Positions 3,913 to 11,944 of a stretch of DNA of 20,895 nucleotides are shown in pieces. This DNA is from DASVDK01 sp036381125 [NCBI: Thermodesulfobacteriota bacterium]. Lineage in GTDB: Bacteria; DASVDK01. A model generated the notes under the pieces. The model ran no database searches. It was given only the letters and a program-made list of their open reading frames with translations, and was not told the DNA's origin. The position numbers and the translations under genes were made by a program. Every line of letters begins with the position of its first letter. The stretch's first letter is position 1. Where the stretch lies: contig DASVDK010000341.1 of assembly GCA_036381125.1 (NCBI GenBank), positions 1 to 20,895 on the forward strand, written 5' to 3'.

Positions 3913-4528
3913 CCGCGCCGCCGGCCGCCTTGCGACCGAGGACGGCCGCACGTTCGACCCTGCCGCCCGCGCCTGGCGCGCCGGCGGACCCGCGCCGGCC
4001 GGCGTGCCGGTGGAGCCGGCCGAGGCGGCCCGCTGGCTCCAGCGGGAGAGCGGGCACCCCTGCCGGCTTCCGGTGGCGGTCGTGGGCCCCCGCGAGGCCA
4101 CGCCCGACCAGCGCGCCGCCGCCGAGGACCTCGGGGTCCGCCTCGCACGCCTCGGCGTGGTGGTCCTCTGCGGGGGGCGCCAGGGGGTGATGGAGGCCGT
4201 CTGCCGGGGCGCGGCGGCGGCGGGGGGCGTCAGCGTCGGCCTCCTCCCCGACGACGACACCCGGCACGCCAACCCCTACGTGACGATCCCCATCGCCACC
4301 GGCATCGGCATCGCGCGCAACGCCCTCATCGCCCGCGCCGGCCTCTGCATGGTCGCCGTGGGAGGCGGCTACGGCACGCTCGCCGAGATCGCCTTCGCCC
4401 TCCAGTTCGGCAAGCCGGTGTTCGGGCTGGCGGGCGCGCCGGACGTCCCGGGCGTCCGTCACCTGCCCGATCTGCCGGCCGCGGAGTCCGCGGTGGCCGC
4501 CCTCCTGCTCGGGCTGCCGCCGGGCTAG
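3896..4528 (+). CDS. LOG/SLOG-fold nucleotide-binding protein (TIGR00725-like) with N-terminal extension
   Basis: This 210-residue cytosolic protein belongs to the Rossmann-like LOG ('lysine decarboxylase-like') group. Some members are phosphoribohydrolases that release bases from nucleoside monophosphates. Visible motifs are VAVVGPRE (60-67), GGRQGVMEA (93-101), IGIARNALI (137-145) and GGGYGTLAEI (156-165), the last two forming the nucleotide pocket in the family. The first ~57 residues, with WLDRAAGRL and DGRTFDP, precede the usual start of the fold and are an extension of unknown role. The ATG at 3896 has a GGAAGGGAG sequence just upstream and overlaps the permease gene by 17 bases, so the two are co-translated. 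The activity is not proven, because family members differ in substrate. Confidence 0.82.
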   Translation: MPLWLDRAAGRLATEDGRTFDPAARAWRAGGPAPAGVPVEPAEAARWLQRESGHPCRLPVAVVGPREATPDQRAAAEDLGVRLARLGVVVLCGGRQGVMEAVCRGAAAAGGVSVGLLPDDDTRHANPYVTIPIATGIGIARNALIARAGLCMVAVGGGYGTLAEIAFALQFGKPVFGLAGAPDVPGVRHLPDLPAAESAVAALLLGLPPG

Positions 4529-5196
4529 CGGGCGTAGGCCTTCCCGAGCCGCCGCTCGTAGGCGCGAAGGCCCCGCACGATGAGCACGGTGACGACCCAG
4601 TAGATCAGCGCGACCTCGATGAGGACCGTGAACGGGTCGAACGTGCGCGCGTAGATGAGCATCCCCGCCCGCATCAGCTCGACGATCGTGATCACGGCGG
4701 CGAGCGACGTGTCCTTGAGCAGGGAGACGAACGTGTTGCCGATGGGCGGGATGGCGACGCGCAGCGCCTGCGGCACCACGACGTACCAGAGCATCTGCCC
4801 CGGGGAGAGGCCGGTCGAGAGCGCCGCCTCCCGCTGGCCGTGTGGGACGGCGAAGAAGGCGCCGCGGATCGTCTCCGACAGGTACGCGCCCGCGTTGAGC
4901 GTGAAGACGACGATGGCCGACGGGACCGGGTCGAGGGTGATGCCGAACTGCGGCAGCCCGTAGTAGACGAGGAAGATCTGCACGAGCAGCGGCGTGCCGC
5001 GGAAGAACGAGACGTAGAGGTCGAACGGCGCCCGGGCGAGGCGGCTGCCGCTCCCCCGCGCCACGGCCGCGACGAAGCCGCAGAGGAGCCCGAGCGCCAT
5101 CGAGACGAGCGTGAGGGTGACGGAGAGCCGCAGCCCCGCGAGCAGCTCCGGCAGGTAGCGGAGCCAGCTCGACAGCACTTCGCCGATCGCCGTCAC
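4525..5196 (-). CDS. Polar amino-acid ABC transporter permease (HisM/GlnP family)
   Basis: This 223-residue inner-membrane subunit has family hallmarks. These are FRGTPL (65-70), NAGAYLSETIRG (101-112), the ATPase-docking EAA loop from residue 123 (EAALSTGLSPGQ, then VVPQALR) and KDTSL (161-165). About five membrane segments are predicted. It follows its binding-protein gene by 46 bases and is transcribed with it. Members often work as homodimers, which fits the presence of only one permease. No ATPase of the HisP/GlnQ kind is encoded in the window, so the subunit must use one made elsewhere. The stop codon shares the palindrome CTAG (4525-4528) with the stop of the convergent LOG gene. Confidence 0.92.
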   Translation of the reverse strand: MTAIGEVLSSWLRYLPELLAGLRLSVTLTLVSMALGLLCGFVAAVARGSGSRLARAPFDLYVSFFRGTPLLVQIFLVYYGLPQFGITLDPVPSAIVVFTLNAGAYLSETIRGAFFAVPHGQREAALSTGLSPGQMLWYVVVPQALRVAIPPIGNTFVSLLKDTSLAAVITIVELMRAGMLIYARTFDPFTVLIEVALIYWVVTVLIVRGLRAYERRLGKAYAR

Positions 5197-5242: not shown

Positions 5243-6031
5243 CTACTTCGTCACGTCGATGCCGAACCACTTGAGCGACATGGCGCGCAGCGAGCCGTCG
5301 GCCTTCATCTCCTCGAGCGCCTTGTTGATCGCGGCGAGCAGCTCGGGGTTGCCCTTCTTCACCGCGATCGCCTGGACCTCGCGCTCGATCGGGCCGCCAA
5401 CCTGCTTGAGGGGGAGCTTCTTCTCCCGGATGGCGATCGCCGGCGCCACGGCGTCGGTCATGGCGGCGTCGATCCGCTTCGCCGCCAGGTCGCTCAGGTA
5501 CTCGTTCATCCCCGGATAGGTCCGGACCTCGACCTCGATCCCTTCCTGCCTCCAGCCGTTGGCCCGCTTCTCGAAGTTGGTGCCGAGCGTGACGCCGAGC
5601 GTCTTGCCGTCGAGGTCCTTGTAGGACTTGATCGTCGTGTTGTCCTTGTGGACGATCAGCATCGGCCCGTAGATCGTGTAGGGCTCCGAGAAGTCGACCT
5701 GCTTCTTGCGCTCCTCGTTCACCGTCATCTGCGCGACGATGACGTCGTAGCGATCCGAGAGCAGGCCCGCGATGATGCCGGCCCACTCGGTCGCCACGAA
5801 CTCCGCCTTCACGCCGAGCTTCTTCGCGATGGCGTTGGCCACGTCCACGTCGTAGCCCTTGAACGCCCCGTCCCGGTCCTTGAAGTTGTAGGGCGGGTAG
5901 GTACCCTCGAAGCCGACGACGAGCTTCCCCTTCTGCTTCACCTCGGCCAGCCTGTCCGCGGCGAAGGCGGGCCGTCCGGCCACGAGACCGACGAGGAGCG
6001 CCAGCGCGAGCGCCCCGAACCGGATCCGCAT
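5243..6031 (-). CDS. Periplasmic amino-acid-binding protein (SBP family 3)
   Basis: This 262-residue exported protein delivers a polar amino acid to the permease encoded downstream. The signal peptide spans about residues 1-24 (core ALALALLVGLVAG, processing motif AFA). Family signatures follow: GTYPPYNF (43-50), KGYDVDVANAIA (58-69) and TVNEERKKQVDFSEPY (103-118). In the last of these Arg108 is at the place that binds the ligand carboxylate in the family. DAAMTDA in the second lobe supplies the usual acidic residue for the amino group. The ATG at 6031 is preferred over in-frame upstream starts because GGAGG lies 5 bases before it. The specific amino acid cannot be read from the sequence. Confidence 0.92.
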   Translation of the reverse strand: MRIRFGALALALLVGLVAGRPAFAADRLAEVKQKGKLVVGFEGTYPPYNFKDRDGAFKGYDVDVANAIAKKLGVKAEFVATEWAGIIAGLLSDRYDVIVAQMTVNEERKKQVDFSEPYTIYGPMLIVHKDNTTIKSYKDLDGKTLGVTLGTNFEKRANGWRQEGIEVEVRTYPGMNEYLSDLAAKRIDAAMTDAVAPAIAIREKKLPLKQVGGPIEREVQAIAVKKGNPELLAAINKALEEMKADGSLRAMSLKWFGIDVTK

Positions 6032-6091
6032 GAGTCCCTCCATGGACGCGCCCGTCTTCCCCCCGACGCCGGGGGCGGGCGCCTCCATACG

Positions 6092-6120
6092 ATCCTACCA
6101 GCGGGGGGCGCCGGCGTCAG
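6092..6120 (-). promoter_or_regulatory. Candidate sigma-70-type promoter of the amino-acid transporter
   Basis: On the minus strand, CTGACG (6115-6120) and TAGGAT (6092-6097) are separated by exactly 17 bases. Each matches its consensus hexamer at 4 of 6 positions. A transcript would start near 6085, about 55 bases before the binding-protein ATG. The -35 box overlaps the expected stop codon of the EamA gene. Consensus matches are weak evidence in GC-rich genomes. Confidence 0.35.
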
Positions 6121-6994
6121 CTTCGTCGTGCGTAGACGACGGCCACGCCCGCCACGGCGAGCGCCATGCCGAGCAGGGCCAGGGCGTCAGGGTCTCGCCG
6201 AAGACGGCGTAGGCCATGACGGCCGTCGTGGGCGGCGTGAGGTAGATCAGGCTCGACACGCGGGCGGCGCTCCCCCGCCGGATGAGGAAGTAGAGGAGCG
6301 ACACGGCGCCGAGGGAGAGCACGACGATGGACCAGCCGACGGCGAACGCGAAGGCCGCCGTCCAGCGGATCGGCCCCTCGCCGACGGCGAGGGCGATCGG
6401 GGCCGTGACGAGGGCCGCCGCGCCGAACTGGACGGCGTTGCCCGCGCGCATGTCGACCTGCCCGCCGAAGCGCTTCTGGTAGAACGTCCCGGCCGTGATC
6501 GCGAGCAGCGCGAGGACGTTGGCCGCCACGCCGGCCGGCGTGCCGAACCCCGACCCGAGCCTGTGCCAGACCGCGAGCGTCACCCCGCCGAAGCCGGCGA
6601 CGAGGCCGAGCCAGTCGAGGGGATCGAGGCGGTCGCCCGACAGCCGACCGGCGAGGAGCCCGACGAGGAGCGGCTGCAGGCCGACGACGAGCGCCGAGAC
6701 GCCCGCCGGCACGCCGGTCTCGATGGCGTAGAAGACGCCGCCGAGGTAGACGGCATGGACGAGCAGCCCCGTCACGGCCAGGTGGCCCACCAGGGCGCGG
6801 TCGCGCGGCCACGGCGCGCCGGTCGCGAGCGCGACGAGCGCGAGGAGCGCCGCCGTGACGGTGAAGCGGAACGCCAGGAAGCTGAAGGGTCCTGCGTACG
6901 GCAGGCCGAGCTTGGCCGCGATGAAGCCGGTGCTCCACATGGCCACGAAGAGCGCCGGCGCGGCCCTGGCGACGGCCGATGGCCTCTCGCTCAA
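6095..6994 (-). CDS. EamA/DMT-family transporter, 3' end frameshifted
   Basis: This is a drug/metabolite-superfamily membrane protein with two EamA repeats, normally ten membrane segments. Visible parts include an early FVAMWSTGFIAAKLG and the second-repeat sequence TFYQKRFGGQ. It starts at TTG 6994, overlapping the mutase stop (TTGA, 6991-6994). The first ~270 residues are normal and end in VFGETLTP. The annotated frame then runs into a polar, Trp-rich tail and stops at 6095. Shifting by one base near 6182-6184 restores a textbook last helix (LALLGMALAVAGVAVVYARR) with a stop at 6117, giving about 292 residues. One G seems missing from a short G run, so this is either a real mutation or an assembly error. 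Its place last in the mutase operon suggests transport of the pathway's substrate or a product, which is inference. Confidence 0.85.
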   Translation of the reverse strand: MSERPSAVARAAPALFVAMWSTGFIAAKLGLPYAGPFSFLAFRFTVTAALLALVALATGAPWPRDRALVGHLAVTGLLVHAVYLGGVFYAIETGVPAGVSALVVGLQPLLVGLLAGRLSGDRLDPLDWLGLVAGFGGVTLAVWHRLGSGFGTPAGVAANVLALLAITAGTFYQKRFGGQVDMRAGNAVQFGAAALVTAPIALAVGEGPIRWTAAFAFAVGWSIVVLSLGAVSLLYFLIRRGSAARVSSLIYLTPPTTAVMAYAVFGETLTPWPCSAWRSPWRAWPSSTHDEADAGAPRW

Positions 6995-8676
6995 AAGACC
7001 GGGGTCTCGACGTAGGTGCCGAACACGCCCCTGAGGCGCTCGACGATCTCCCCCATCGTCGCGCGCGCCTCGACCAGCTCGATCGTGACCGGCATCAGGT
7101 TGCGCGACGGGTCGCGCGCCTCGTCGGCCAGGCGGGCGAGGAGCGCATCGACCTTCGCCTGATCGCGCGTGGCGCGCACGCGCCGGGTGCGGGCGATCTG
7201 GCGCCGCTCGGCCTCGGGGTCGACGCGGTGGATCTCCACCGTCTCGGGCTCCCCGTTCGCCTCGACGTAGCGGTTCACGCCGATCACCGGCTGCTCGCCC
7301 GACGCGCGGCGACGCGCCGTCTCGTACGCCGAATCGGCGATCGCCTTCTGGAAGTAGCCCTCCTCGATCGCCCGGATCGTCCCGCCCATGGCGTCGACCT
7401 TCGCCAGGATCGCGTCGACCTCGCGCTCGATGGCGTTCGTGAGCGACTCGACGTACCAGGAGCCCCCGAGCGGGTCGATGACGTTCGGGACCCGCGTCTC
7501 CTCGGCGATGATCTGCTGCGTGCGGAGCGCCACCTTCATGGCGCGCTCCGAGGGGATGGCGTACGCCTCGTCGAGGCCGTTGGTGTGGAGCGACTGCGCC
7601 CCGCCGAGGACCGCCGAGAGGGCCTGGAACGCCGTCCGGACGATGTTGTTGAGCGGCTGGGCCTTCGTGAGGGTGGCCGCGGCGGTCTGGCAGTGGAAGC
7701 GCAGCCGCATCGACTCCGCCTTCGTGGCGCCGAAGCGCTCCTTGAGCAGACGCGCGTAGACGCGGCGGGCGGCGCGGAACTTGGCCACCTCCTCGAAGAA
7801 GTCCTGCTGCGCGACGAAGAAGAAGGCCAGCCGCGGCGCGAACTGGTCCACCGTGATCCCCGCCGCCGTCACCTCCTCCAGGTAGGCGACGGCGTTGCAC
7901 ATGGTGAACGCCACCTCCTGCACCGCGGTCGCGCCGGCCTCCGAGATGTGGTAGCCGCTGATGTTGATGGGGTTGTAGCGGCGCATCCGCTCCGAGCAGA
8001 AGACGATCATGTCGCGCACGAGGCGCATGGCCGGCCGGATCGGGAAGATCCACTCCTTCTGGGCGATGTACTCCTTGAGGATGTCGGCCTGGACGGTCCC
8101 CGACAGCTTGTGGAGGTCGTAGCCGCGCGACTCGGCCAGCGCCACGTACATGGCGAGGAGGATCCAGGCCGTCGGGTTGATGGTCATGGAGACCGACGTC
8201 GTCTCGAGGTCGATCCCCTCGAAGAGGGCGGCCATGTCCTCGATCGTGTCGATCGCCACTCCCTCGCGCCCCACCTCCCCCTCGGACCGCGGATGGTCCG
8301 AGTCGTAACCCATGAGGGTCGGCATGTCGAAGTCGACCGACAGCCCCGTCTGGCCCTGCTCGATGAGGTAGCGGAACCGCCGGTTGGTGTCCTCGCCCGT
8401 GCCGTAGCCCGCGATCTGCCGCATGGTCCAGAGGCGGCCCCGGTACATCGTCGGGTACGGCCCGCGGGTGAACGGGTATTGCCCCGGCAGCCCGATGTCC
8501 TCGAAGGGCGTCTCCGCCACGTCCTCCGGCGTGTAGACGCGCTCCACCTCGAGACCGGAGAGCGTCCGGTACTCCGGCTTCGCCTCGGGCTGCCGCGCGC
8601 GAAACTCCGCCAGCTCCTTCGCCTCCCACGCCTTCCGTTGCGCCGCCACCCGCTTGATCACGTCGGGGTCGAACAT
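6991..8676 (-). CDS. hcmA: 2-Hydroxyisobutyryl-CoA mutase, large subunit (B12-dependent acyl-CoA mutase)
   Basis: This 561-residue catalytic subunit should interconvert 2-hydroxyisobutyryl-CoA and 3-hydroxybutyryl-CoA by a radical mechanism, with adenosylcobalamin held by the small subunit. It is a TIM-barrel acyl-CoA mutase without its own B12 domain (YPTMYRGRLWTMRQ, GYDSDHP, FHCQTAAATL, GGAQSLHTN, IDPLGGSWYVE). Three positions separate it from methylmalonyl-CoA mutase: Ile88 in RQIAG (Tyr there), Asp115 in SVDFD (Ala there) and Gln206 in IAQKEW (Arg there). Ile and Asp correspond to Ile90/Asp117 of HcmA from Aquincola tertiaricarbonis, whose C-terminal ETPVF is also shared, as I recall that sequence. 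The ATG at 8676 has AGGAG upstream. Isobutyryl-CoA mutase (Phe at 88) is a less likely alternative. Confidence 0.9.
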   Translation of the reverse strand: MFDPDVIKRVAAQRKAWEAKELAEFRARQPEAKPEYRTLSGLEVERVYTPEDVAETPFEDIGLPGQYPFTRGPYPTMYRGRLWTMRQIAGYGTGEDTNRRFRYLIEQGQTGLSVDFDMPTLMGYDSDHPRSEGEVGREGVAIDTIEDMAALFEGIDLETTSVSMTINPTAWILLAMYVALAESRGYDLHKLSGTVQADILKEYIAQKEWIFPIRPAMRLVRDMIVFCSERMRRYNPINISGYHISEAGATAVQEVAFTMCNAVAYLEEVTAAGITVDQFAPRLAFFFVAQQDFFEEVAKFRAARRVYARLLKERFGATKAESMRLRFHCQTAAATLTKAQPLNNIVRTAFQALSAVLGGAQSLHTNGLDEAYAIPSERAMKVALRTQQIIAEETRVPNVIDPLGGSWYVESLTNAIEREVDAILAKVDAMGGTIRAIEEGYFQKAIADSAYETARRRASGEQPVIGVNRYVEANGEPETVEIHRVDPEAERRQIARTRRVRATRDQAKVDALLARLADEARDPSRNLMPVTIELVEARATMGEIVERLRGVFGTYVETPVF

Positions 8677-8701
8677 ACGGTCTCCTGCGCACTTACGACA
8701 G

Positions 8702-8761
8702 GGGGGCAGGCCTTTCCATTTTCCCGGCCGACACCGATGGAAAACGTTGAGGCCTGACCCC
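8702..8761. repeat. REP-like imperfect palindrome between the HAD and mutase genes
   Basis: Outer arms of 12 bp (8702-8713 and 8750-8761) pair with one mismatch (GGGGTCAGGCCT on one side, G for T on the other). An inner stem TTTTCC (8719-8724) with GGAAAA (8739-8744) extends the structure around a loop containing GGCCGACACC. The element is visibly richer in A and T than its surroundings. It starts 4 bases after the HAD stop codon and ends 25 bases before the mutase start. Its form resembles extragenic palindromic (REP) elements moved by RAYT transposases. No second copy or transposase is in the window. Confidence 0.55.
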
Positions 8762-8765
8762 ATCG

Positions 8766-9395
8766 TCAGGACCTGATCCCCAGGAGGGGGAGGAGGCCGG
8801 TGAGGTCGGGGGCGTCGACGAGCGGCGGCGGGGCGCCCTGGGGCACCGGCAGCCGCGCGCGGTTCTGCCAGTAGACGGGCATCCCGACGGCCGGGGCGCC
8901 CTTCACGTCGTGTGCCGAGCCGGCCACGAAGAGGACCCGCCCGGCGGGCAGCCCGAGACGGTCGAGCAGCGCCCGGTACGACCGCGGATCGGTCTTGTAG
9001 ACGCCGGCCCGCTCGGCGGACAGCACCAGCTCGAACCGGCCGCCGGTGGCGGCGGCGGCGATGTCGGCGAGCCGCTGCGAGCAGTTGGTCAGCACGGCGA
9101 GCCGCCGGCCGGCGAGGCGCGCGAGGACGCCGGGGACCTCGGGCCACGGGCGGATCTCCCCCCACCTGGCGATCAGCTCGTCCGCCTTCGAGGGGGGCAG
9201 GCCCACCTCGGCCGCCGCCTCGTGCAGGACGTCCTCGTACGAGCGGTAGTTGCCGGCCGCGGTGACGATGCGCAGGGACGCGGTCCGCCACGCCCGCCCC
9301 ACCGCCTCGTCGCCCGCCACGGCCGCGTAGAGCGTCCAGGAGTCGACGAGCGCGGTCAGGAGGTCGAAGGCGACGGCGTCGTAGCGCGGCGTCAC
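8766..9395 (-). CDS. HAD-superfamily hydrolase, haloacid-dehalogenase type II-like, with altered motif I
   Basis: This 209-residue cytosolic protein has the HAD fold. Motif I is FDLLTALVDSW with nucleophile Asp11, motif II is LTNCS (Thr103-Asn104), motif III is YKTDPRSY (Lys134), and motif IV is VAGSAHDVKGA (Ser160, Asp163). The pattern of motifs III and IV is closest to 2-haloacid dehalogenases. However, the usual Gly-Thr after the nucleophile (DxxGT) is Thr-Ala here, so dehalogenase or phosphatase activity should not be assumed. The GTG start at 9395 overlaps the ligase stop (GTGA, 9392-9395). Its position between the CoA ligase and the mutase implies a role with hydroxy-acid or acyl-CoA intermediates, possibly removal of a side product. 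The substrate is unknown. Confidence 0.82.
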   Translation of the reverse strand: MTPRYDAVAFDLLTALVDSWTLYAAVAGDEAVGRAWRTASLRIVTAAGNYRSYEDVLHEAAAEVGLPPSKADELIARWGEIRPWPEVPGVLARLAGRRLAVLTNCSQRLADIAAAATGGRFELVLSAERAGVYKTDPRSYRALLDRLGLPAGRVLFVAGSAHDVKGAPAVGMPVYWQNRARLPVPQGAPPPLVDAPDLTGLLPLLGIRS

Positions 9396-10828
9396 GAGGT
9401 CACCCCCTTGCGGTAGAGGTCCCGGTCGTCGACGACGCGGCGCGCCTTGAACTCGGTCCGCGGGAGCGTCCCCTCGGGCACGAGGTCGAGCCTCGGCCGG
9501 ACGCCGAGGCGCGCCTGCAGGCGCCGCCGTATCTCCACCTCGAGCGAGCGCCGCGCGTCCTCGGCCGCGTGCGAGGCGGCGTACTCCACCTGGACGAGCA
9601 GCTCGTCCATCCGCTCGCGCCGCGAGATGATCACCCGGAACTCGCCGCCGAAGCCGGCGATGCCGCGGAGCGTCTCCTCGATCGCCGCCGGGTAGATGTT
9701 CTCGCCACGGACGATGAACATGTCGTCGATCCGCCCGTAGATCCCGGCCGGCAGGCGCGGGTAGGTGCGGCCGCAGGGGCAGGGCTCGTCGGTCCAGCGC
9801 GTGAGGTCGCCGGAGACGAGCCGGATCATCGGCTGCGAGGTCCGCTCGAGGTGCGTGTAGACCGGCGTCCCCTCCTCGCCGTACGCGACCGGCTCGAAGC
9901 GCGTCGGGTCGCACACCTGCGTGTAGACGAGATCCTGCCAGAGGTGCATGCCGGTACGGTGGCGGCACTCGCCGTCGGTCATCCAGGGGGTCATCTCCGC
10001 CATGCTGCCGGTGTCGATGCAGAGCCCGCCGAAGGTCTCCTCGATGAGCCGCCTGGTCGTGGGAATCCCCGCCCCGGGCTCGCCGGAGAAGACGAGGACG
10101 CGGAAGCCGAAGCTCCGGGGGTCGATCCCCTCCTTGCGCGCCGTGTCGGCGAAGTGGAGGGCGTAGGACGGGGTGCCGTAGAAGGCGGTCGGCCGAAGCT
10201 CCCGGGCCCACTGCACGGCCATCAGCGTCTGTCCGGCGACGCCTGCGCCGAAGGGGAAGGCCGCCGCGCCGAGCCGCTCGCAGCCGGCGAGCATCCCCCA
10301 GGAGCCCATGTAGAGGCTGAAGAACGAGCAGATCATGACGCGATCGGACGGCCGGACGCCGGCCCCCCAGAGGATGCGCGCGTGCGCCTCGCCGATGCGC
10401 GCCCAGTCGCCGCGGCCCACGGCGAAGACCGTGGGACGGCCGGTCGTGCCGCTCGTCCCGTGGATCCGGGCGACCTCCGACTCGTCGACGCAGACGTAGT
10501 CGCCGAAGGGGGGGCTCGCGGCCTGCGCCTCGCGCAGCTCGGCCTTGGTGACGACGGGAAACCGGGCGAGATCGTCGAGCGAGCGGAGCGTGTCCGGGGA
10601 GACGCCGGCCGCCTCCCACTTGCGCCGGTAGAAGGGGCTCCGCTCCCACGCCCACGCGACCTGCCGCCTGAGCTTGAAGAGGACCAGGGCGTCGCGCTCG
10701 GCCGGCGGCGCGCACTCCACGGCCGGCAGCCAGTGCTCGGCCGTCTCGGCCGGTCGGAAGGCCGGGTCGTACCGGGGCGGCCAGACCGACAGGTCCACGC
10801 CCGGGTGGCGCGCGGCGAGGCCCGTCAC
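9392..10828 (-). CDS. Acyl-CoA ligase, PaaK type, probable 2-hydroxyisobutyrate-CoA ligase
   Basis: This 478-residue AMP-forming enzyme of the phenylacetate-CoA ligase group should activate a carboxylic acid to its CoA thioester using ATP. Visible motifs are the phosphate loop [11 protein letters not shown] (123-133), FSGEPGAG, the adenine-binding region [18 protein letters not shown] with its ribose-binding Asp, [10 protein letters not shown] typical of PaaK proteins, the hinge [15 protein letters not shown], and the C-terminal catalytic Lys461 in PRTEFKARR. It starts at GTG 10828, overlapping the stop of the B12-subunit gene by four bases. Known 2-hydroxyisobutyryl-CoA mutase clusters contain such a ligase, so 2-hydroxyisobutyrate is the best substrate guess. 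The substrate call rests on context, while the enzyme class is clear. Confidence 0.88.
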
Positions 10829-11241
10829 GGCCTTTGCCCACGGCGCGCCGCCACGAGGTCCTGCAGGCGGGCCACGATGGCGTCGGGCGGCGTGTCCTGC
10901 GGGAAGACCTCGGCGACGCCGAGCCGGCGCAGCGGCTCCACGTCCTCGTCGGGAACCACGCCCCCCACGACGACGAGGATGTCGTCCGCGGCGGCGGCCC
11001 TGAGCGAGTCCACGATCTTCGGCACGAGGGTCATGTGGGCACCGGACAGGAGGCTCACCCCGACGACGTCCACGTCCTCCTGCACGGCCGCGGCAACGAC
11101 CTCGTCCGGCGTGCGGTGCAGCCCCGTGTAGATCACCTCCATGCCGGCGTCGCGCAGCGTGCGCGCCACGACCTTGGCGCCACGGTCGTGGCCGTCGAGG
11201 CCGACCTTGGCGACCAGGACACGGATGGCAGCGGTCGACAT
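10825..11241 (-). CDS. hcmB: Acyl-CoA mutase B12-binding small subunit (2-hydroxyisobutyryl-CoA mutase beta)
   Basis: This 138-residue protein is a stand-alone cobalamin-binding Rossmann domain that pairs with the large subunit encoded at 6991. The B12 signature is complete: DGHDRG (16-21), where His18 replaces the dimethylbenzimidazole ligand of cobalt, then GVSLLSG (61-67, the SxL element) and VVGGVVP (91-97, the GG element). The length is normal for a separate small subunit. The ATG at 11241 shares one base with the regulator's stop (TGATG), and GGAGG lies 7 bases upstream. The large-subunit residues decide the assignment to hydroxyisobutyryl- rather than methylmalonyl-CoA mutase, since the B12 subunits look alike. 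The two subunit genes are separated by the ligase and HAD genes. Confidence 0.9.
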
Positions 11242-11900
11242 CACGAGTCCTCCCCCTTCGAGGCGGCGAGCAGGTGGCGGCGCGCCGCCCTGGCGTGCTT
11301 GACCGCGATGGCGCGCGCGCGAGCCGGCTTGCGCCCGGCGATGGCCTCGACGAGCGCGGCGTGCTCGTCCCACGCCTGGACGCGATACCCGGCGCCGCCG
11401 AGCGTCATCGCCATGAGGCGCCGGACGTGGCTCCACTGGCCGCGCATGACCTCGGTCATCACCCGGTTGCCCGACGCCTCGTAGAGCGCCATGTGGAAGT
11501 CGAGATCGAGGTCGATCAGGCGCGGGAGCGAGCCGCCGCGGGCGGCGGCGCGGCCCCGGCCGACGATGTCCCGTAGCGGCGCGGGGTCGAAGTCGCGCCG
11601 GGCGGCCACCTTGGCGGCGACGAGCCCCTCGATGGCCTCGCGCAGCTCGTAGAGGTCGCGGATGGCCTGCCGGTCGAGCGGCGCGACGACGGCGCCGCGC
11701 CTGGGCGTGGCACGGACGAGCCCCTCGCGCTCGAGCAGCAGGAGCGCCTGGCGCACCGGCTCGCGCGAGACGCCGAGCTCGGCGGCGAGCGCCTCCTGCT
11801 TGATGCGCGTCCCCGGGGCGAGCACGCCGGCCAGGATGGCGGCGCGCATCTCGGCGGCGACCCGGGCAGGCAGCGGCGGCTCGGCGGCAAGGGGCTTCAT
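11241..11900 (-). CDS. GntR-family transcriptional regulator (FadR/VanR group, FCD domain)
   Basis: This 219-residue DNA-binding regulator heads the mutase operon. The N-terminal winged helix-turn-helix spans residues ~10-75 ([20 protein letters not shown], then [12 protein letters not shown]). An all-helical FCD ligand-binding domain follows, with acidic and histidine residues typical of its metal site ([17 protein letters not shown]). Such proteins usually sense an organic acid and repress their own operon. The ATG at 11900 is preferred over an in-frame TTG at 11915 because the TTG lies inside the likely -10 box. The resulting 5' leader would be very short. One base overlaps the next gene. 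The effector is probably an acid or CoA ester of this pathway (inference). Confidence 0.88.
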
Positions 11901-11906
11901 GGATTC

Positions 11907-11914
11907 TGGATCCA
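11907..11914. promoter_or_regulatory. Palindrome TGGATCCA at the predicted transcription start
   Basis: This perfect 8-bp palindrome lies between the likely -10 box and the regulator's ATG, about where transcription would begin. It could be a second half-site for the GntR protein, but a palindrome this short may be chance. Confidence 0.2.
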
Positions 11915-11944
11915 AGACTACGACGACCGGCGCGCGCCGGTCAA
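11915..11944 (-). promoter_or_regulatory. Candidate promoter of the mutase operon (TTGACC-N18-TAGTCT)
   Basis: On the minus strand a -35 box TTGACC (11939-11944, 5 of 6 consensus matches) and a -10 box TAGTCT (11915-11920, matching the key first, second and last bases) are 18 bases apart. Transcription would start near 11908, only a few bases before the regulator's ATG at 11900. The spacer is largely filled by a perfect palindrome. It is the best promoter match in the window. Confidence 0.5.
11925..11942. promoter_or_regulatory. Perfect 18-bp palindrome, candidate operator for the GntR regulator
   Basis: GACCGGCGCGCGCCGGTC is identical to its own reverse complement. It occupies most of the -35/-10 spacer of the operon promoter and overlaps four bases of the -35 box, a position where a bound repressor would block RNA polymerase. 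It lies between the divergent regulator and DUF481 genes and could affect both. The regulator gene next door belongs to a family that binds palindromes. GC-rich palindromes can arise by chance here, so the call is tentative. Confidence 0.45.

What the first reader, a model, noticed from the sequence alone, without database searches (positions are those of the whole stretch)
6991..11900. Operon for a 2-hydroxyisobutyryl-CoA mutase pathway, easily mis-annotated as methylmalonyl-CoA mutase
Seen: a split acyl-CoA mutase whose large subunit has Ile88, Asp115 and Gln206 where methylmalonyl-CoA mutase has Tyr, Ala and Arg, together with a PaaK-type CoA ligase, a HAD hydrolase, an EamA transporter and a GntR/FCD regulator. 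Known: Ile90/Asp117 define 2-hydroxyisobutyryl-CoA mutase of Aquincola tertiaricarbonis. Inferred: the host converts 2-hydroxyisobutyrate, known from fuel-oxygenate and acetone-cyanohydrin breakdown, or a related acid, to 3-hydroxybutyryl-CoA. The gene order and the HAD and EamA partners may be a new version of this pathway.
Basis: partly seen in the sequence, partly recalled or inferred. Interest (0 to 1): 0.82.

Follow-up and report, generated by a model that had tools for sequence, protein, structure and literature searches.

The report
2-hydroxyisobutyrate mutase operon with extra hydrolase
An uncultured bacterium carries a known kind of vitamin-B12 operon for breaking down 2-hydroxyisobutyric acid, easily mislabelled as methylmalonyl-CoA mutase; its one odd feature is a dehalogenase-like gene wedged into the middle.

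Summary
The minus strand encodes GntR/FCD regulator, B12 subunit, CoA ligase, HAD hydrolase, mutase large subunit and EamA transporter, mostly with overlapping ends. The large subunit has Ile88, Asp115 and Gln206, matches solved 2-hydroxyisobutyryl-CoA mutase (HCM) at 856 bits against 469 for methylmalonyl-CoA mutase (MCM), and falls inside the HCM clade. The 'PaaK-type' ligase is closest to the specific 2-hydroxyisobutyryl-CoA ligase HCL (605 against 246 bits). The pathway reading is well supported. But the gene set is published (PMC7176365) and the order GntR-hcmB-hcl-hcmA is that of Methylibium PM1. What differs: meaH is absent, as in 19 of 27 scorable genomes of the Rokubacteria-containing phylum, and a HAD sits in its place. 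No HAD hit appeared in the DNA fetched around 44 other HCM-type genes. The HAD resembles an entry named fluoroacetate dehalogenase, but its nearest relative found (73%) lies beside a groEL gene in a genome whose own hcmB-hcl-hcmA operon has no HAD. A role in the pathway is possible, not shown. EamA is not a conserved partner.

The parts
11241..11915 (-). GntR/FCD-family regulator (start TTG 11915 or ATG 11900); its stop shares one base with the hcmB start
   Evidence: Pfam FCD and GntR; 38.3% identical to the GntR next to the PM1 hcm operon
10825..11241 (-). hcmB-like B12-binding small subunit, 138 aa
   Evidence: Pfam B12-binding; 173 bits to 4r3u_C, the HCM small subunit; 64.7% identical to PM1 HcmB
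9392..10828 (-). hcl-like 2-hydroxyisobutyryl-CoA ligase, 478 aa, GTG start overlapping the hcmB stop by 4 nt
   Evidence: 605 bits to 6hdw 2-hydroxyisobutyryl-CoA synthetase against 246 for the best phenylacetate-CoA ligase; 55.6% identical to the PM1 ligase
8766..9395 (-). HAD-IA hydrolase with a DxL nucleophile motif (dehalogenase-like, not phosphatase-like), 209 aa, GTG start overlapping the hcl stop by 4 nt
   Evidence: 185 bits to 9c9e 'Fluoroacetate dehalogenase 4A', at most 53 for any other solved structure listed; TIGR01428 106.0 bits, below its cut-off of 125.4 (scanned without the first three residues)
8677..8765 (-). spacer with a strong hairpin (inverted repeat 8702-8724 / 8739-8761) and the hcmA ribosome-binding region
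   Evidence: Folds at -45.2 kcal/mol, z -3.97 against shuffles; inverted repeat
6991..8676 (-). hcmA: 2-hydroxyisobutyryl-CoA mutase large subunit, 561 aa
   Evidence: 856 bits to 4r3u_A; I88/D115/Q206; inside the HCM clade
6095..6994 (-). EamA-family transporter; a TTG start would overlap the hcmA stop by 4 nt; probable frameshift near the 3' end
   Evidence: Pfam EamA (scanned as 6095-6985); start read from sequence; second frame 6117-6938 covers the end

Best explanation
A catabolic operon of the known HCM type. HCL activates 2-hydroxyisobutyrate (or a close 2-hydroxy-2-methyl acid) to its CoA ester; HcmAB with adenosylcobalamin rearranges the carbon skeleton to give 3-hydroxybutyryl-CoA, which enters central metabolism through enzymes coded elsewhere; the GntR/FCD protein senses the substrate or a metabolite. 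The operon lacks its own MeaH chaperone, so a MeaB-type protein coded elsewhere may serve, or none. The HAD between hcl and hcmA is an addition seen so far only here: an intact hydrolase of the dehalogenase type whose start overlaps the hcl stop and whose role is not settled. Shown: gene identities, active-site residues, clade, order. Inferred: substrate, reaction, regulation and direction.
For: HcmA 856 bits to 4r3u against 469 for MCM; HcmB 173 bits to 4r3u_C; ligase 605 bits to 6hdw against 246 for PaaK. Columns 88/115/206: I (L in one)/D/Q in 44 of 44 nearest loci and F/A/Q in the next 36 of 36; I/D/Q in PM1 and 4r3u, Y/A/R in three MCMs. Tree: the window falls in a 73-row clade with both HCM references, SH-aLRT 100; 3 of 3 MCM and 18 of 18 F88/A115 rows lie outside. 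Same order in PM1, with meaB between hcl and hcmA; gene set described in print (PMC7176365 section 5).
Against: No activity data. A MeaH query found nothing in the window; no 3-hydroxybutyryl-CoA dehydrogenase or adenosyltransferase was among the ten window proteins scanned, and the rest of the window was not scanned for them. HCMs differ in side activities: the Bacillus and Kyrpidia enzymes also take L-lactyl-CoA, the Aquincola enzyme does not (PMC11599936 section 7), so the natural substrate could be another 2-hydroxy acid. The R/S stereochemistry of the product is not settled by these residues: a V88/D115 row also lies in the clade.
Confidence: 0.87

Rival explanations
1. On the HAD: it is a working step of the pathway. 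It hydrolyses a 2-halo (or similarly activated) acid to the 2-hydroxy acid that HCL then activates, so the operon takes in a halogenated precursor. (This and the next entry are readings of the HAD alone; both fit the best explanation, and the rest of the odds goes to some other role.)
For: 4-nt overlap with hcl; closest solved relative is named a fluoroacetate dehalogenase, 50% identical over 199 residues; the nucleophile Asp, the WR arginine, the YK lysine and the last Asp line up with classical members. L-type enzymes make 2-hydroxy acids from 2-halo acids (PMC8554231, passages). The one other genome found with a HAD of about 73% identity also has HCM, which 8 of 195 genomes of its phylum have at the cut-off used.
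Against: In that genome (G558) the HAD lies beside a groEL gene and the hcmB-hcl-hcmA operon has no HAD. No HAD hit of 25 bits or more in the DNA fetched around 44 other HCM-type genes and 30 loci of the Rokubacteria-containing phylum. TIGR01428 cut-off not reached. The mini-review says that L-type enzymes other than L-DEX YL have high activity only on 2- and 3-carbon acids (PMC8554231, passages). A tertiary C-X carbon is a poor SN2 target (chemical knowledge).
Confidence: 0.1
2. On the HAD: it is a passenger, an accessory hydrolase gene that has landed in several operons and has no part in 2-hydroxyisobutyrate metabolism.
For: Relatives lie in unlike places: next to, or one gene away from, an alanine-racemase/serine-dehydratase-type gene in 12 of 12 Proteobacterial members examined, after a chaperonin gene, next to ABC transporter genes in two genomes. 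Not found near other HCM genes.
Against: Intact, with catalytic residues kept, and its start overlaps the hcl stop. The window and G558 copies share sequence changes that set them apart from the racemase-linked group, which suggests selection for some function; and both occur with HCM.
Confidence: 0.55
3. The large subunit is an isobutyryl- or methylmalonyl-CoA mutase.
For: Family- and domain-level models name it methylmalonyl-CoA mutase.
Against: MCM equivalog cut-off not reached (602.8 against 876; that model includes the B12 domain, which is a separate protein here); Ile88 and Asp115 match neither MCM (Y/A) nor the F/A type; tree; linked ligase is HCL-like.
Confidence: 0.03

Closest known systems
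hcm operon of Methylibium petroleiphilum PM1 (plasmid RPME01); HcmAB of Aquincola tertiaricarbonis
   Same: GntR, hcmB, hcl, hcmA in this order in PM1; HcmA 67.5% identical to PM1 and 67.6% to 4r3u
   Different: PM1 has meaB between hcl and hcmA, a divergent GntR, and downstream adenosyltransferases, a TPP enzyme and 3-hydroxybutyryl-CoA dehydrogenase. The window has a HAD in the meaB place, GntR in the same direction with touching ends, and EamA downstream.
hcl-hcmA operons without meaH in the Rokubacteria-containing phylum and in G558, G551 and G097
   Same: HcmA 76-80% identical; hcl directly upstream of hcmA and no meaH between in 19 of 27 scorable genomes and in G558, G551 and G097
   Different: No HAD hit in the DNA fetched from any of them around hcmA; flanks there are about 1.5 kb for most
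9c9e 'Fluoroacetate dehalogenase 4A' (HAD family)
   Same: 50% identity over 199 residues, same FDLLTAL and VAGS...D motifs
   Different: The window copy departs at positions shared by the racemase-linked group (YA for WN after DSWT, AS for EY or AY after WR, T for Y in the LTY stretch). The activity of 9c9e was not checked in print here; that it is DeHa4 of Delftia D4B is a guess.

Membership tests
2-hydroxyisobutyryl-CoA mutase (HcmAB) | Ile90/Asp117 (88/115 here) and Gln in place of the MCM Arg | tested here: met
   I88, D115, Q206; same in 4r3u and PM1. The Aquincola numbering is from the finding and recall
2-hydroxyisobutyryl-CoA mutase (HcmAB) | Separate B12-binding small subunit | tested here: met
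   138-aa ORF, best solved match 4r3u_C
2-hydroxyisobutyryl-CoA mutase (HcmAB) | Groups with characterised HCM and apart from MCM and ICM types | tested here: met
   SH-aLRT 100; ECM, PCM and named RCM references were not in the tree, the F/A rows are not characterised ICMs, and the only IcmF row sits on a very long branch
2-hydroxyisobutyryl-CoA mutase (HcmAB) | Operon with hcl | tested here: met
2-hydroxyisobutyryl-CoA mutase (HcmAB) | meaH chaperone gene in the operon (usual, not universal) | tested here: not met
   No hit of a MeaH query in the window; also missing between hcl and hcmA in 19 of 27 scorable relatives
2-hydroxyisobutyryl-CoA mutase (HcmAB) | Interconverts 2-hydroxyisobutyryl-CoA and 3-hydroxybutyryl-CoA | not testable with these tools
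   Needs an enzyme assay
2-HIBA-CoA ligase (HCL) | Closer to HCL than to phenylacetate-CoA ligases | tested here: met
   605 against 246 bits
2-HIBA-CoA ligase (HCL) | Activates 2-hydroxyisobutyrate | not testable with these tools
   Needs an enzyme assay
Methylmalonyl-CoA mutase | Tyr, Ala, Arg at the three positions; MCM equivalog score | tested here: not met
L-2-haloacid dehalogenase (type II HAD) | TIGR01428 cut-off | tested here: not met
   106.0 bits against 125.4 (scanned as 206 aa)
L-2-haloacid dehalogenase (type II HAD) | Nucleophile Asp without the +2 Asp, plus Arg, Lys and final Asp (list recalled) | tested here: met
   Alignment; but the SSN stretch of classical members reads AGS here, which is recalled as part of the classical site
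L-2-haloacid dehalogenase (type II HAD) | Releases halide from 2-halo acids | not testable with these tools
   Needs an enzyme assay

The most novel reading that the evidence does not exclude
The HAD has been recruited to widen the HCM pathway upstream: it makes the 2-hydroxy acid from a 2-halogenated or otherwise activated branched acid, so that dehalogenation, CoA activation and B12 rearrangement are coded in one operon. One search for the words together gave 4 papers, whose listing shows no such system; I read none of the four for it.
Probability: 0.08. Interest if true: 0.6.

Novelty: new member of a known kind. Interest (0 to 1): 0.3.

Why it matters
It adds to the evidence that 2-hydroxyisobutyrate catabolism reaches uncultured lineages: matches to this HcmA at 76-80% identity were listed for 31 of 95 genomes of the Rokubacteria-containing phylum, two of them partial. 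That fits a natural rather than only a fuel-additive source of this acid, as PMC7176365 already suggests. It also shows how readily such operons are filed as methylmalonyl-CoA mutase. The HAD is a cheap, testable question about where the substrate comes from.

Tried and rejected
MCM or ICM identity: rejected by residues, profile cut-off and tree.

HAD as a conserved operon member: looked for in the DNA around 44 HCM-type loci and 30 loci of the Rokubacteria-containing phylum (no hit of 25 bits or more); in 5 genomes of named loci (weaker homologs in 5 of 5, 28-44% identical, all on contigs other than the HCM one); in 95 genomes of the Rokubacteria-containing phylum (0 at 1e-30); in 39 further HCM genomes (3 at 1e-18, one of them 56% identical in the Methylobacterium planeticum genome, next to a racemase-type gene); in 398 genomes of the phylum of G112 (6 at 1e-35); in a 195-genome phylum, asked twice under two centres with the same answer (3 at 1e-30, G558 the closest); in 297 genomes of the phylum of G096 (0). 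The twelve racemase-linked HAD loci and L151-L156 hold no hit to hcmA, hcmB or hcl, though most have flanks of only 1.5 to 7 kb. bear the tool's caveat that no positive control lay in the set; G112 and G558 show that the search can find the gene. No metagenome collection could be searched, so the window's own close relatives may be missed.

Host: TreY is 57% identical to one genome of the Rokubacteria-containing phylum and at most 55% in the phylum of L007, a Myxococcales record by title, while the hcmA tree weakly joins the window to L007, G558 and G551 (84/83). The host is left open.

Hairpin: an exact 14-base piece of it was in none of the 150 loci then held; so it was not tied to a repeat family.

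Literature for 9c9e: no paper held has its name, and '9C9E' is absent from the text of PMC12184663, PMC12350541 and PMC13419579 (passages only seen). The primary papers on HCM structure and on Methylobacterium are not held.
Full report
What is there. On the minus strand the window has a run of genes: GntR/FCD regulator 11241-11915, B12-binding subunit 10825-11241, CoA ligase 9392-10828, HAD hydrolase 8766-9395, mutase large subunit 6991-8676, EamA transporter 6095-6994 (families). Neighbouring ends overlap by one to four bases, given the start codons chosen here, except between HAD and hcmA, where 89 bases hold a strong hairpin (-45.2 kcal/mol, z -3.97; inverted repeat) and the hcmA start region. 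A solute-binding protein and a permease lie further on (ORFs 5243-6088 and 4525-5196); neither query hit the DNA around 44 other HCM genes.

Large subunit. Ile88, Asp115 and Gln206 are as stated. Its best solved match is the 2-hydroxyisobutyryl-CoA mutase 4r3u at 856 bits, against 469 for human MCM. A further 25 of 25 loci of the Rokubacteria-containing phylum have I, D, Q, while E. coli, S. meliloti and human MCM have Y, A, R. A 95-row tree puts the window inside a clade of 73 rows with both HCM references (SH-aLRT 100); all 3 MCM rows, all 18 F/A rows and the IcmF row lie outside. Limits: a quick search without bootstrap, IcmF on a very long branch, the two HCM references nearly identical, and no ECM, PCM, characterised ICM or named RCM row.

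Ligase and small subunit. The ligase scores 605 bits to 6hdw, 2-hydroxyisobutyryl-CoA synthetase, and 246 to the best phenylacetate-CoA ligase. The small subunit matches 4r3u_C best (173 bits; 153 to the next). Against the PM1 operon the identities are hcmB 64.7%, hcl 55.6%, hcmA 67.5%, GntR 38.3%.

Is the order new? PMC7176365 (abstract, introduction, gene-cluster section and discussion read) describes hcl in operon with hcmAB or rcmAB and meaH, with a GntR gene usually upstream. PM1 shows GntR, hcmB, hcl, meaB, hcmA. So the core is known. Matches at 76-80% identity were listed for 31 of 95 genomes of the Rokubacteria-containing phylum, and 30 of them came as loci. Of these 30, 8 have meaH directly before hcmA, 19 have hcl directly before hcmA, and 3 were not scored (G001 and G076 at contig ends, G091 with hcmB next to hcmA) (counted). 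The window is of the meaH-less kind plus a HAD. An EamA hit lay near only one of the 44 named loci (L019), about 5 kb from hcmA.

The HAD. Its closest solved relative is 9c9e, named Fluoroacetate dehalogenase 4A (185 bits; all others at most 53). Motif I is DxL, which fits C-X hydrolysis and not phosphatase chemistry (general HAD knowledge). Twelve of 12 Proteobacterial members of the group that I examined lie next to, or one gene away from (L105, L148), a gene with alanine-racemase and serine-dehydratase domains (domains shown for L101 and L102). The nearest relative found, 73% identical, is in G558 directly after a chaperonin gene; that genome has hcmB-hcl-hcmA on another contig without a HAD or meaH between them. 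In its phylum 8 of 195 genomes have an HCM-type match at the cut-off used, G558 among them; with one case this co-occurrence is only a hint. Two more distant members (44-45%) lie next to ABC transporter genes. I therefore rate a passenger role as likelier than a pathway step, but the overlap with hcl and the kept active-site residues leave the pathway reading open.

Verdict. A sound identification of a known kind of operon, probably in an uncultured lineage, with one unusual gene whose function needs a simple assay. The host is not settled: hcmA leans weakly to the L007/G558/G551 group (84/83) and TreY slightly to the Rokubacteria-containing phylum.

Noticed in passing
window 6095-6994: EamA transporter whose last part seems to continue in another frame (ORF 6117-6938), so a frameshift or a sequencing error is likely near the 3' end.
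   Followed up: no
L004 7292-8983 (same genome as L136); L122; [quoted passage not shown] TPP domains for L004), as PM1 does. Mutase, ligase and a lyase-like enzyme together could link ketones to this pathway.
   Followed up: partly
L145 6001-7671 (Sinorhizobium medicae pSymA): Mutase with Val88, Asp115, Gln206 on a long branch inside the HCM clade: a candidate for the R-specific (RCM-like) type.
   Followed up: no
L101-L106, L110, L146-L150: A HAD subfamily with FDLLTALLDSW and VAGS motifs lies by racemase/serine-dehydratase-type PLP, LysR and sometimes RidA genes, among others on plasmids of Methylobacterium, Erwinia, Cupriavidus, Variovorax and Caballeronia; the pathway is unknown to me.
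   Followed up: partly
window 8702-8761: Strong hairpin between HAD and hcmA without a U-run, so unlike a plain terminator; an exact 14-base piece was in none of 150 loci.
   Followed up: partly
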